This document shows positions 21,075-32,124 of a stretch of 41,904 nucleotides of DNA, piece by piece; the first letter of the stretch is position 1, and the number at the start of each line of letters is the position of its first letter. The position numbers were made by a program, and so were the translations under genes. The notes below the pieces were generated by a model, which was not told the origin of the DNA, made no database searches, and saw only the letters and a program-made list of their open reading frames with translations. This stretch comes from Bacteroidaceae bacterium (lineage in GTDB: Bacteria > Bacteroidota > Bacteroidia > Bacteroidales > Bacteroidaceae), in assembly GCA_017517605.1 (NCBI GenBank), contig JAFWYQ010000098.1, positions 1 to 41,904 on the forward strand, read 5' to 3'.

Positions 21075-21317
21075 ATGAAACGAATCATTTACTTTTTGTG
21101 TATATCAGCATGGATTCTTTCCCTTAATGCCGTAAATTCCTCGGATGAAGATGTTGTAAAGGATTACAAAGACTCTACGGAGTTCTCGATGACAGATACA
21201 AAATGGTATAGCAACACTCCAGTCTGTTACAGTTTAGGTACGGATACACTCATTGACGGCAATATATGGAGAAGCCTGTATAGAGGCTTGCAGCCTGATT
21301 CCCTTTTCGTCGTATGA
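21075..21317 (+). pseudogene. Truncated gene for a secreted protein
   Basis: An ATG opens a signal peptide (MKRIIYFLCISAWILSLNA). About 55 residues of mature sequence follow, with the string KWYSNTPVCYSLGTDTLIDG and then IWRSLYRG. This resembles the N-terminal part of many short Bacteroides secreted proteins of unknown function, which normally run 150-300 residues. The frame stops at 21317. The final codons overlap the point where the opposite strand becomes readable as an IS110 transposase N-terminus. The gene is therefore best seen as cut by a deletion or insertion that joined it to the IS remnant. It may still be transcribed as an 80-residue product, but that is doubtful. Confidence 0.55.
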
Positions 21318-21420
21318 ATAGCTGCCTTGAATACTCTTTTCATCCTCATTGAATGAAAAAACATGCATCAAATTTCTCTTTGGAGATGTCAATTCCAATA
21401 ATTTTGCTTACCTTTGCCAT
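21295..21420 (-). pseudogene. IS110-family transposase, N-terminal fragment, frameshifted
   Basis: From the ATG at 21420 the frame reads MAKVSKIIGIDISKEKFDAC. GIDISK is the first strand of the RuvC-like DEDD domain and holds the first catalytic Asp. At a run of six T's (21361-21356) the frame breaks to a stop four codons later. With one base less it continues as NEDEKSIQGSYSYDEKGIR, again IS110-like. A complete protein of the family has 300-400 residues, so about a tenth remains. Beyond about 21295 the strand becomes antisense to the truncated secreted-protein gene. Confidence 0.65.
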
Positions 21421-21439
21421 AACTATTTTATTTAAGTCT

Positions 21440-21640
21440 TGCAGAAGGCTCTTTGTGTGTTTCATCGATTCTACACACAGGCTCTAACGCCTAACGAACT
21501 GTCCGAAATCTACAAAGAGGGTAAAGGGGACTAACATTCTGAACGGTGTTATGAACACCAATGACAGTTAATAACCTTCATCCTTTACCTCTTCTGTTTT
21601 CTTTGCGAAGATAGCGAAAAATCGCTATCTTCGTTTTTTC
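21440..21640 (-). ncRNA. Candidate bridge RNA of the IS110 remnant
   Basis: Read on the minus strand downstream of the TATATTTG box. First comes a 5' hairpin of 11 perfect pairs (21633-21623 with 21616-21606). Then a domain closed by GGTAAAGG/CCTTTACC (21589-21582 with 21527-21520), with a large internal loop and an apical hairpin GGTGTT-AACACC (21559-21545). Directly after it is a second domain closed by CTCTTTGT/ACAAAGAG (21519-21512 with 21456-21449), with an internal loop and inner stem AGGC/GCCT (21492-21479). A 5' hairpin plus two stem-internal-loop domains just upstream of the transposase is the layout known for IS110 bridge RNAs. Read by eye, not folded. Alternatively the first hairpin plus T6 on the plus strand is only a terminator. 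Confidence 0.45.
21606..21639 (+). terminator. Terminator-like hairpin on the plus strand
   Basis: CGAAGATAGCG and its perfect complement (21606-21616, 21623-21633) with a six-base loop are followed by six T's. On the plus strand this has full intrinsic-terminator form, though no intact plus-strand gene lies upstream. On the minus strand the same hairpin would be the 5' stem of the candidate bridge RNA. Confidence 0.5.
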
Positions 21641-21642
21641 TG

Positions 21643-21650
21643 CAAATATA
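21643..21650 (-). promoter_or_regulatory. -7 box before the IS110 leader
   Basis: TATATTTG on the minus strand matches TAnnTTTG exactly. It places a start site within a few bases of the 5' hairpin. No good -33 element is found at the right distance. In IS110 elements this is expected if the upstream element is supplied by the other IS end in the circular form. Confidence 0.45.
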
Positions 21651-21760
21651 GGATGACAGAGACATCATCATTTGCAACAGTTTGGATGACACGGATTACC
21701 CTCCTCTCATAAAACGCTTGCTTTGTATCCGTGGAAATCCATCAACGCGCCGAATGGTAC

Positions 21761-22500
21761 AACCGTGTTATCCGTGCCTAAAAAAACTCTGTGTCTCCGT
21801 GTTCCAAATAAAAAAAATGTAATAAAGATACTTTTTGCTTACATTTTGTCAGATTGGAAATGTATATTTCCCCTGCCCGAAATGAATAAATATGCAACAG
21901 TGAGGGGGACAACAATCACCTTTTGTATATTTATGCAGAAAAAGAGGCATGGAAAAGCGGGAGGCTTCCCCCAAATAGATCGGATGAAGTCTCATGCAGA
22001 CTCTATGGCCCTACAAAAACGCTTAAGCGTGGCTGCGGTAACGCTTAACCGTTTTTTCGGCAGACTGAACACTTATTGCATTTTCTCTTAACAGTTATTC
22101 AACAACGCTTAAGAGATACCCGGTAAGTGTCAAGATTTGCCGTGCCAAGTCTCCTCTTCCTTTGAATAAACCTTCAGAATTGTGCCGCCAACCTCGATTT
22201 TTGCTTCTTTGGGATGCTTTACCGGCAAAAAAAACTCCTTTCGCGATTTTTTAGAGGCAAAACAGGAAACAAGAAAATAGAGCTTAATCAACTATATACC
22301 AGTATGGTAACTGGAATATGGAAGCGATTTCCTTCGCATATTTCTCTCCATCCTGTACCCCCCTTACGGAAATACAGAACTCTCGAAAGGCCGAATATAC
22401 ATTTTTACAAAATGTCAATAGTGGACAAATTATTTGGAAAGCAGAGACACGGAGACACAGAGTTTTTGTTTTAGGCACGGATGACACTGATGACACGGTT
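21761..22500. repeat. Region bounded by a long imperfect inverted repeat
   Basis: The arm 21761-21802 (AACCGTGTTATCCGTGCCTA, an A-run, then CTCTGTGTCTCCGTG) is repeated inverted at 22447-22500. The core ACACGGAGACACAGAGTTTTT is identical over 21 bases, and GGCACGGAT is also shared; the right arm has two small insertions. A further GATGACACGGATTACC lies at 21684. The interior (about 640 bases) has no convincing gene. The arms use motifs seen elsewhere in the window, so the pairing may be two independent copies and not one element. Confidence 0.55.
21805..22446. other. Gene-poor stretch with possible decayed coding
   Basis: No complete gene is seen. CGCTTAAG-type palindromes occur at about 22019-22030 and 22105. 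On the minus strand 22291-22130 is an open frame of 53 codons without an ATG (TTG start), with a protein-like composition in its second half (KHPKEAKIEVGGTILKVYSK). I do not recognise it. A plus-strand frame from 21881 starting MNKYATVRG is of random appearance. Confidence 0.4.
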
Positions 22501-29532: not shown

Positions 29533-32124
29533 ATGAACAAAAATCAATGGAAAAAACGGATTTCATACCTGTTGGCATGTCTTCTCATTGTCTTGCAGGT
29601 AAAGGCTGCCGATGAGAAAAGGAATAATGAAGTGAATATACCTTTTAATAAAGGTACACTGCATCTGAAGATAATGTCTCCTAATGCCATCCGAGTACAA
29701 TACATGGAAGGAGAGGGGCGAGAGCTGTCTGAATGGATATATCTACCCGAAGCAGGAGAGGGGAAAGTAAAATTCAAATGCAGACAAACTGAAAACGGAA
29801 CCCTCATCGAAACTGCGGAGATGAGTATCCGTGTAAATCAAGAAGAACAAATTCTAACAGTAAACAACAAACAAGGCGAAGAGGTATTCAAAGCCACTTC
29901 ACACCAGTTGCAAGCAAGCACAGTACAAGGTGAACCCACCTACATAGCCCAATTGCAGATGGATTCGCCCACAGATGAATACCTCTACGGACTTGGTCAG
30001 TTTCAAGACGGATACAGTAACGTACGCGGATTGACCCGCCGATTGACACAGGTAAACACCCAAATCGCCATCCCCTTCCTAATGTCAAGCAAAGGGTATG
30101 GTTTGCTTTGGAACAACTACGGCCTGACCGATTTCAATCCCGCCGACGCTTCGCTGAAGTTAGAACGGGGTAACGAAATGGGTGAAGCAGTAACCGTTGA
30201 TGTAACTTCTACAGAAGGAGGCAAGCGCGAAGTACGTCGTTCAAATGCCTTCCAAGGCACACTGGACATCCCAACGGATGGCAAATATGCTCTGTTACTC
30301 GATGTCGGCCAAAAAATGGCCCGCCGCCACCATTTGAACATTGACGGGAAAAACATTATGGACATCAGAAACACATGGCTCCCCCCAACCACCTCTGTCA
30401 TCGTGGATTTGAAAGCCGGCACACACAAAGTGAGTGCCGAATTGGAACGTAATGACCGACCGACACTTTACTACAAAGCTGTGGATGATTTGACGACCTT
30501 ACGCTCGCCTGTAGCCTCGTGTGTAGATTACACATTGTTCGTGGGCAATGCCGACGAGGTGATAGCCACCTATCGCGATTTGACAGGCGAAGTTCCCATG
30601 TTACCCGAATGGGCATTGGGCTATGTGCATTGTCGCGAACGATACAAATCACAAAACGAATTATTAGAAAATGCAACCACCTTCCGCCAACGCAAATTGC
30701 CTCTCGATCTGATTGTACAGGACTGGCAATATTGGGGTAAATATGGTTGGAACTCTATGCAATTCGATGAAGCACACTACCCCGACCCTGCCGCCATGGT
30801 AAAGAGTTTGCACGACATGAACATACGTCTGATGCTTTCCGTATGGTCCAAAGTAGATGAGAATTCCGAAGTAGGCAAGCAAATGACAGCCAAAGGATAC
30901 TACATTCCAAAAACATCATGGATTGACTTTTTCAATCCCGATGCAGCCGCATTCTATTGGAAGAACTTCAGCGAACGATTATTGAAACCATATAGCATTG
31001 ATGCATGGTGGCAAGATGCGACCGAACCCGAAAACGACGATTTGGAAGGCCGACGGGTAAACAACCAGACAATCCCTGGTGAAGTGTATCGTAATGTTTA
31101 TCCACTATTGGTCAGCAAAACCGTTTACGAAGGATGCCGCACTGACGCCCCCGACCGTCGCCACATGATATTCACCCGTAGTGCCTTCCCTGGCATACAA
31201 CGCTATGGCTCAGTATTTTGGTCAGGCGATGTAGGCAACGACTGGGAAACTCTACGCCGACAGATTGTTTCCGGTTTAGGACTTGTCAGTACCGGCCTGC
31301 CCTGGTGGACTTATGATGCAGGAGGATTCTTCCGCCCAGGAAATCAACACTCCAATGCCGACTATATTGAGTGTATGATCCGTTGGATACAGGCTGGCAC
31401 TTTCCTGCCATTGATGCGTGTACATGGATATATGAGCGATACAGAGCCTTGGCGCTATGGCAAAGAGGCCGAACAAATTATTTCCAAATATTTGGAATTG
31501 CGTTACCGGTTATTACCTTATATATATTCCGAAGCCGCACGGGTATCTTATGACGGTTCAACCCTGATGCGTCCTCTCGTATTCGATTTTGCTAACGACG
31601 AAGAGGCATTGAAGCAAGATGTTGAATATATGTTCGGTCCCTCCATGCTCATCAATCCTGTAATAAAGAAAGGAGCAACCACTTATCAAAGTTACTTGCC
31701 CGAGAACAAAGGTGGTTGGTATGATTTCTGGACAGGCAAACAATACTCCGGTAAGCAATATGTAAGCACCAACATCGATATTGAAAAGATTCCTGTTTTC
31801 ATTAAAGCAGGTTCTATCCTTCCTTTGGGTCCAGTAAAGCAATATGTTGCAGAAAAAAGCGACGAACCCATAGCCTTACACATCTACCCTGGAGCAGATG
31901 CAACCTTCTGCCTCTACGAAGACGAAGGTGTCAACCACAATTATGAATCAGGTGCCTATAGCCTTATACCTCTGACATGGGACGAAAACAAACAGACCTT
32001 GACCATCGGCAAGCGCCAAGGAGAGTTTGAAGGTATGCAGCAAGAACGAACATTCACTGTCGTCAAAGGAGATGTAAAGAAAGAGGTTGTTTATACGGGA
32101 AAGAAGATACAAATTAAATGGTAA
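29533..32124 (+). CDS. Glycoside hydrolase family 31 with PA14 insert, alpha-xylosidase-like
   Basis: An 863-residue exported enzyme (signal peptide about 1-25, ending LQVKAA). The N-terminal beta-sandwich (about 30-220) is interrupted by a PA14-like domain (about 222-345; GTLDIPTDGKYALLLDVG, HHLNIDGKNIMD). The GH31 barrel follows from about 355. The nucleophile is Asp495 in WWQDATEPE, and the acid/base is Asp566 in FWSGDVGNDW. The C-terminal beta domains contain PVFIKAGSILPLG and YEDEGVNHNYE. A PA14 insert at this place is known from xyloglucan alpha-xylosidases of GH31, so release of alpha-xylose, or else alpha-glucose, is likely. The stop overlaps the start region of the SGNH gene; the two are one operon. 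Confidence 0.93.
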   Translation: MNKNQWKKRISYLLACLLIVLQVKAADEKRNNEVNIPFNKGTLHLKIMSPNAIRVQYMEGEGRELSEWIYLPEAGEGKVKFKCRQTENGTLIETAEMSIRVNQEEQILTVNNKQGEEVFKATSHQLQASTVQGEPTYIAQLQMDSPTDEYLYGLGQFQDGYSNVRGLTRRLTQVNTQIAIPFLMSSKGYGLLWNNYGLTDFNPADASLKLERGNEMGEAVTVDVTSTEGGKREVRRSNAFQGTLDIPTDGKYALLLDVGQKMARRHHLNIDGKNIMDIRNTWLPPTTSVIVDLKAGTHKVSAELERNDRPTLYYKAVDDLTTLRSPVASCVDYTLFVGNADEVIATYRDLTGEVPMLPEWALGYVHCRERYKSQNELLENATTFRQRKLPLDLIVQDWQYWGKYGWNSMQFDEAHYPDPAAMVKSLHDMNIRLMLSVWSKVDENSEVGKQMTAKGYYIPKTSWIDFFNPDAAAFYWKNFSERLLKPYSIDAWWQDATEPENDDLEGRRVNNQTIPGEVYRNVYPLLVSKTVYEGCRTDAPDRRHMIFTRSAFPGIQRYGSVFWSGDVGNDWETLRRQIVSGLGLVSTGLPWWTYDAGGFFRPGNQHSNADYIECMIRWIQAGTFLPLMRVHGYMSDTEPWRYGKEAEQIISKYLELRYRLLPYIYSEAARVSYDGSTLMRPLVFDFANDEEALKQDVEYMFGPSMLINPVIKKGATTYQSYLPENKGGWYDFWTGKQYSGKQYVSTNIDIEKIPVFIKAGSILPLGPVKQYVAEKSDEPIALHIYPGADATFCLYEDEGVNHNYESGAYSLIPLTWDENKQTLTIGKRQGEFEGMQQERTFTVVKGDVKKEVVYTGKKIQIKW

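What the first reader, a model, noticed from the sequence alone, without database searches (positions are those of the whole stretch)
21295..21660. IS110 5' remnant with a leader shaped like a bridge RNA
Seen: a minus-strand IS110-like start (GIDISK motif) at 21420. It is preceded by a consensus -7 box (21650-21643), an 11-pair hairpin (21606-21633) and two adjacent domains closed by perfect 8-base stems (21582-21589/21520-21527 and 21512-21519/21449-21456), each with a large internal loop and an inner hairpin. Known: IS110-family elements such as IS621 encode a bridge RNA upstream of the recombinase with a 5' stem-loop, a target-binding loop and a donor-binding loop. Inference: this is a Bacteroidales version kept in a dead element. 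Its internal loops would name the target and donor sequences of the parent IS.
Basis: partly seen in the sequence, partly recalled or inferred. Interest (0 to 1): 0.75.

Follow-up and report, generated by a model that had tools for sequence, protein, structure and literature searches.

The report
Dead IS110 start with bridge RNA
A broken jumping gene in a gut bacterium still carries the guide RNA that would have told it where to land, and intact copies in related bacteria show which small repeated DNA sites that kind of guide reads.

Summary
Window 21654-21295 (minus) is the left end of an IS110-group element: a -7 box, a 12-pair hairpin, two internal-loop domains and the recombinase start, frameshifted and cut off after about 42 codons. 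Intact relatives exist in two Bacteroidaceae genera. Their recombinases match IS621 and ISCro4 (E about 1e-33, 1e-32) and keep the DEDD and serine residues. The leader folds far better than shuffles (z -5.87). In an alignment not fitted to the structure, 5 of 8 pairs of the target-loop stem have compensatory changes.

The guide was the decisive test. The element inserts at GTCAT|N, mostly in a REP-like palindrome (GTCATNCTGARCG..GAAGN'ATC). N and the next bases differ between genomes, and the 3' side of the first loop differs with them. Of 120 reassignments of five guide types, only the true one reaches the observed fit. Eight distant elements repeat the result (6 of 40,320), though three of the eight fit poorly. 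The second loop matches the element's own ends, its right half weakly. Joined ends would form a Bacteroidota-type promoter.

It is a defunct new member of a known kind, with a likely AT core where IS621 has CT. Transcription and activity are inferred.

The parts
21655..21666 (-). Left flank GATGTCTCTGTC, the left part of a REP-like target (left target, LT)
   Evidence: GTCTCTGTCAT is the left context of intact REP copies: own genome 5 copies at up to 2 mismatches; also seen left of several G165 copies
21653..21654 (-). Probable core dinucleotide AT at the left boundary of the element
   Evidence: GTCAT at left ends, GTTCAT plus a variable base at 16 of 16 right ends retrieved by similarity to the right end; AT is inferred within the shared TCAT
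21643..21650 (-). -7 box TATATTTG; in a circle the right end would supply TTTG 20 bases upstream
   Evidence: 5 of 5 right-end types joined to the left end give TTTG-N20-TATATTTG; consensus quoted in PMC7366714. Promoter activity not tested
21606..21633 (-). 5' stem-loop, 12 pairs
   Evidence: the 12 pairs never vary in seven leaders, so covariation says nothing for or against it
21442..21596 (-). Body of the bridge RNA, closed by CAGAAG/CTTCTG
   Evidence: the outer stem is out of register in distant leaders in the unfitted alignment
21520..21589 (-). Target-binding domain, closed by GGTAAAGG/CCTTTACC
   Evidence: 5 of 8 stem pairs have changes on both sides in 15 leaders
21561..21567 (-). 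Left target guide CUGUCAU
   Evidence: Identical to the left flank CTGTCAT of this copy; 4 of 1000 shuffled loops match as long
21535..21545 (-). Right target guide CGUUCAGAAUG, naming CATTCTGAACG
   Evidence: Same guide as G165, whose six right flanks start CATTCTG; this copy's own right flank is lost
21449..21519 (-). Donor-binding domain, closed by CTCTTTGT/ACAAAGAG
   Evidence: outer stem 64.6% paired, inner hairpin 92.0% paired in 15 leaders
21493..21502 (-). Left donor guide ACAGUUCGUU (one base changed from ACAGUUCAUU of the relatives)
   Evidence: Right ends read ACAGTTCAT; 7-base match left in this copy, 9 bases in 5 of 5 relatives tested
21468..21473 (-). Right donor guide UAGAAU, complementary to ATTCTA of the left end of the relatives
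   Evidence: 6-base match that 9.6-15.9% of shuffled loops reach: weak by itself
21295..21420 (-). Start of the IS110 recombinase gene, frameshifted and truncated

Best explanation
This is the left end of a dead IS110-group insertion sequence. In intact relatives (about 1.23 kb) the element would excise as a circle; joining right and left ends would complete a promoter that drives a bridge RNA of roughly 200 nt. Its first loop would pair with both strands of a genomic site of the form GTC-AT-N, mostly a REP-like palindrome, and its second loop with the element's own joined ends. The DEDD/serine recombinase would then exchange strands at a short core, probably AT. Shown here: homology, structure, complementarity of guides with target and donor, covariation of the right target guide with the insertion site, and REP-like repeats as the main target. 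Inferred: transcription, RNA binding, the circle and the recombination itself. The window copy has no working recombinase and no right end.
For: Intact relatives with both ends; profile match to IS621 and ISCro4 with D11, E60, D102, D105 and S241 of IS621 all identical in L005; folding z -5.87; compensatory changes in 16 of 46 pairs over 15 leaders; guide-target fit reached by 1 of 120 reassignments of guide types and 6 of 5040 of genomes, and by 6 of 40320 in eight distant elements; left donor guide equals the right end over 9 bases in 5 of 5 leaders tested; REP-like target in 7 of 9 genomes searched, backward control 0 of 9.
Against: No expression or activity data. In one search the number of pairs with both sides changed (16) is not above shuffles (mean 13.7; 83 of 500) and the +1 slide has an equal covariation score (0.254 against 0.249). 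Three of eight distant elements (L083, L086, L087) fit their guide poorly. The exact REP pattern is absent from G214 and G263. For G227, G239, G263 and five of six G165 flanks the leader and right end lie on different contigs. The right donor guide match is weak. Rfam names nothing here.
Confidence: 0.92

Rival explanations
1. The leader is only an untranslated regulatory structure (attenuator or translation control) of the transposase; its resemblance to a bridge RNA is formal.
For: Stable hairpins before a transposase gene are common (recalled). No expression data.
Against: It does not explain why the 3' side of the first loop changes with the insertion flank or why the second loop repeats the far right end.
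Confidence: 0.04
2. The agreement of guide and flank reflects host REP composition: the element carries REP-like bases that drift with the host's repeats, without pairing.
For: In G165, 59 of 63 exact REP copies have N = T, as the guide does; in a 274-kb sample of G239 the TTTG form its guide names is common (5, against 6 TCTG).
Against: In G123, 25 of 32 exact REP copies have T and only 4 have G, yet both guide and insertion have G. The distant elements sit in flanks that look unrelated to the REP and five of eight fit at 4 or more of 5 positions, G-U counted half.
Confidence: 0.03
3. The hairpins act as DNA, as subterminal structures recognised by a transposase in the manner of IS200/IS605.
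For: A perfect 12-pair hairpin near the end.
Against: The protein is an IS110 recombinase, not an HUH enzyme; the loops fit both strands of target and donor.
Confidence: 0.01

Closest known systems
IS621 (IS110 group) and its bridge RNA, PMC11208160 and PMC11208158
   Same: Recombinase homology and catalytic residues; long left end with a 5' stem-loop and two internal-loop domains; 5' side of each loop like the top strand, 3' side complementary to it; REP-like target; promoter across the circle junction.
   Different: Core probably AT instead of CT; Bacteroidota-type promoter motif instead of sigma-70; right target guide up to 11 bases instead of 4-7; both domains held in one enclosing stem in the predicted fold.
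ISCro4 (PDB 9t56)
   Same: Recombinase matches at E 1.3e-32.
   Different: Its RNA and target were not compared here.
ISPa11 and other IS1111-group elements with a seekRNA, PMC11187229
   Same: RNA-guided DEDD transposase; ISPa11 targets REPs of Pseudomonas aeruginosa (passages).
   Different: Their RNA maps downstream of the transposase gene; here it lies upstream.

Membership tests
IS110 family | DEDD RuvC-like domain PF01548 plus PF02371 | tested here: met
   L004 and L006, both domains above cut-off. The window fragment alone is below cut-off (E 0.094).
IS110 family | Catalytic D, E, D, D and serine | tested here: met
   All five identical to IS621 in the alignment of L005 (residue numbers from passages of PMC11208158). 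Not present in the truncated window copy beyond the first D.
IS110 group (not IS1111) | Long left end with the RNA, short right end | tested here: met
   About 234 bases from AT to ATG in the window; about 22 bases from stop to CAT in L004.
Bridge RNA | 5' stem-loop and two domains with internal loops, conserved by compensation | tested here: met
   with the limits given there
Bridge RNA | First loop complementary to both strands of the target, covarying | tested here: met
   Right guide. Left guide: 6-7 base match in 6 of 6 leaders tested but invariant in the close group, so no covariation there.
Bridge RNA | Second loop complementary to both sides of the donor | tested here: inconclusive
   Left side met (9 bases, 5 of 5); right side 6 bases, reached by 9.6-15.9% of shuffles.
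Bridge RNA | Promoter rebuilt at the circle junction | tested here: inconclusive
   Motif and spacing present in 5 of 5 end types; activity not testable here.
Bridge RNA | RNA is made and bound by the recombinase | not testable with these tools
   No RNA-seq or binding data.
IS621 itself | CT core | tested here: not met
   The base after CAT at right ends varies with the target, so the exchange lies within TCAT.

The most novel reading that the evidence does not exclude
Within one Bacteroidaceae IS110 lineage the right target guide has been rewritten several times by one to three base changes, so that the element reads different variants of a host REP-like palindrome (N = T, G, A, C, or TT), while its left target guide and left donor guide stay almost fixed. 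This would be a natural record of guide reprogramming, run from an AT core and a Bacteroidota-type circle-junction promoter.
Probability: 0.6. Interest if true: 0.6.

Novelty: new member of a known kind. Interest (0 to 1): 0.5.

Why it matters
It gives a compact natural series of bridge RNAs that differ mainly in the right target guide, with matching insertion sites, so natural retargeting can be tested directly. It offers candidate bridge recombinases from Bacteroidaceae and ties IS110 targeting to a Bacteroidaceae REP-like palindrome.

Tried and rejected
Rfam at gathering thresholds gave no match in the window. The viral collection gave no relatives. The genome-contig scan gave 10 loci, 4 of them close. 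Short hits (23-48 bases, such as L002, L003, L010-L021) were treated as chance or repeat matches; only L015 was looked at, in the junction table.

An RNAalifold outer stem joining the -7 box to the end of the second domain was set aside: a transcript should start after the -7 box, and the fold of the window uses CAGAAG/CTTCTG. In the distant leaders helices 3, 5 and 6 are only 49.3, 64.6 and 41.3% paired in the unfitted alignment; I did not refit them. Folds of four pieces of three distant leaders were not clearly better than shuffles (z -1.79, -0.77, +0.93, +1.06).

Rows dropped: G314 (guide, no right end), G317 and G172 (right end, no leader) and the window (no right end) could not enter. 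One search used one flank per genome for the close group. For L087, whose right end lacks CAT, I set the register by eye; L081 and L083 share one guide, so their exchange is counted as a separate reassignment. One search covered six leaders (not G239, G310, G314); for G165 the left flank came from another copy, because the contig of L004 starts at the element. Right ends had to align to at least position 68 of a 75-base query, so conservation up to CAT is partly a condition of retrieval. L015 and the head-to-head left ends L051-L054 were left out. No covariance model, structure prediction or fold search was run.

Full report
What is there. On the minus strand from 21666 down to 21295 the window holds a flank GATGTCTCTGTC, then AT, a TATATTTG box, a 12-pair hairpin, two internal-loop domains inside a 6-pair stem, and the first codons of an IS110 recombinase. 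The frame is lost in a T run and homology to intact elements ends near 21295. The leader folds far better than shuffles (z -5.87, 0 of 200).

Relatives. A DNA search of 301 family genomes gave 19 with a match at E <= 0.001; besides the own genome only G165, G123, G214, G227, G263 and G239 have long ones. Genus searches found it in 3 of 15 genomes of the window's genus, the own one included, and in 6 of 44 of a second genus. Named records of four of these loci are Bacteroidaceae MAGs from roe deer, sheep, yak and water buffalo. A protein profile matched 16 of 399 family genomes at E <= 1e-40; the own genome, 80.5% complete, is not among them.

Recombinase. L004, L005 and L006 encode 323, 323 and 321 residues. 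L004 and L006 carry PF01548 and PF02371. The profile matches two distinct PDB sequences, IS621 (E 1.3e-33) and ISCro4 (1.3e-32). The residues D11, E60, D102, D105 and S241, whose mutation abolished IS621 activity (PMC11208158, passages), are identical in the alignment of L005.

Structure across relatives. In seven close leaders 57 pairs are 99.2% paired, with 2 pairs changed on both sides (275 of 500 shuffles reach that) and 6 such cells (0 of 500). These leaders are too alike for more. Eight leaders of elements about 33-37% identical in protein were added with MAFFT, not fitted to a structure. Now 71.7% of cells pair (slid versions 38.7-56.1%; shuffles 63.1%, 0 of 500). Sixteen of 46 pairs have changes on both sides (shuffles 13.7; 83 of 500), 62 cells (0 of 500), and the target-domain stem has 5 of 8 compensatory pairs. 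Against it: the +1 slide has an equal covariation score (0.254 against 0.249), which I put down to shifted registers in the distant leaders, and the number of further pair types is not above shuffles (500 of 500).

Insertion sites. Left ends read GTCAT then TCTATATTTGC (the window: GTCATCC). The 16 distinct right ends retrieved all read GTTCAT, followed by a base that differs between genomes. Reading that table, 9 of 16 right flanks contain the far half of the palindrome (GAAG.ATC or GAAAAATC), 3 a variant (GAGG.ATC) and 4 do not. Exact copies of GTCATNCTGARCGNAGYGAAGNATC: G165 63, G123 32, G239 19, G227 14, G314 12, own genome 6, G310 2, G214 0, G263 0; the backward pattern gives 0 in 9 of 9 genomes. 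Many lie as inverted pairs about 60-65 bases apart. With the left context kept in the window flank, the own genome has 5 copies at up to 2 mismatches, so the window element probably sat in such a repeat; its right half is gone.

Guide and target. [quoted passage not shown] Here the 3' side of the first loop reads CAGAAUG in G165 (flanks CATTCTG), CAGCAUG in G123 (CATGCTG), CAGUAUG in G263 (CATACTG), CAAAAUG in G239 (CATTTTG), and CGGGAUG in G214 and G310 (CATCCTG, one G-T) and G227 (CATCCGG with one mismatch, CATTCCG with one G-T). Over 7 genomes and 14 flanks, 6 of 5040 reassignments fit as well (12 of 5040 on base N alone); over five guide types, 1 of 120, the true one. Leader and flank are on one contig for G123, G214, G310 and one G165 copy only.

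Distant elements. All eight have leader and right end in one locus. On five positions, G-U counted half, L084 and L085 score 5, L090 4.5, L089 and L081 4, L083 and L087 2.5, L086 1.5. Six of 40320 reassignments reach the total (4 of 40320 with G-U counted half). Pooled with the close group, 0 of 200000 shuffles do.

Donor and promoter. The 5' side of the second loop repeats ACAGTTCAT of the right end in 5 of 5 relatives tested (at most 3 of 1000 shuffles); the window keeps 7 bases. The 3' side complements ATTCTA of the left end, which 9.6-15.9% of shuffles reach. Joined ends give TTTG-N20-TATATTTG in 5 of 5 right-end types, like the sigma-ABfr motif TAnnTTTG with TTTG near -33 (PMC7366714, passages). 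IS621 likewise rebuilds a promoter in its circle (PMC11208160, section 5 read).

Core. Since the base after CAT comes from the target, exchange lies within the shared TCAT; AT is the pair that all four proposed guides cover (inference). Non-CT cores, AT among them, were made in IS621 and were generally less efficient (PMC11208160, passages).

Novelty. It meets the family features that could be tested; CT belongs to IS621, not to the family. Searches on bridge RNA, IS110, Bacteroides, seekRNA, ISCro4 and REP (listings seen) showed no title on a Bacteroidota bridge RNA, and no word beginning with Bacteroid is in the main text of PMC11208160. The library lacks most subscription papers, and PMC11208160 predicts bridge RNAs in 85.7% of ISfinder IS110s, so a relative may already be predicted. 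The window copy is a relic: no recombinase, no right end, ATCCTA at its left end and one changed base in the left donor guide.

Noticed in passing
L051-L054 (G165:C23 near 31571-31651 and G165:C42 near 213723-213803): Two left ends of the element face each other through the perfect 5' hairpin, with different flanks on both sides. Probably an assembly error at a palindrome, but a real head-to-head junction is not excluded.
   Followed up: partly
for example G165:C6:121725-121813: A REP-like palindrome GTCATNCTGARCGNAGYGAAGN'ATC in which N pairs with N' and GAAC..GTGAAG swaps with GAGC..GCGAAG, often as inverted pairs about 60-65 bases apart: 148 exact copies in 9 genomes, backward control 0.
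   Followed up: partly
L081, L083-L087, L089, L090: A distant group of Bacteroidaceae IS110 elements (about 33-37% protein identity) with the same leader plan, very variable right target guides and diverse insertion flanks; L089 has an extra C in both left guide and left flank.
   Followed up: partly
window 21075-21317, + strand: An 80-codon frame that begins like a secreted protein runs into the insertion remnant and ends there; it may be a host gene cut by the same deletion.
   Followed up: no
window 21833-22289, minus; second copy G000:C90:45827-46289 (L232): About 457 bases beside the remnant recur elsewhere in the own genome at 84% identity. Nature unknown.
   Followed up: no
L015 (G151:C20:16441-16468): A 28-base match to the very left end (GTCATTCTATATTTGCAGAAAAACGAA) without the rest of the leader; perhaps a solo remnant or a host promoter.
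   Followed up: no
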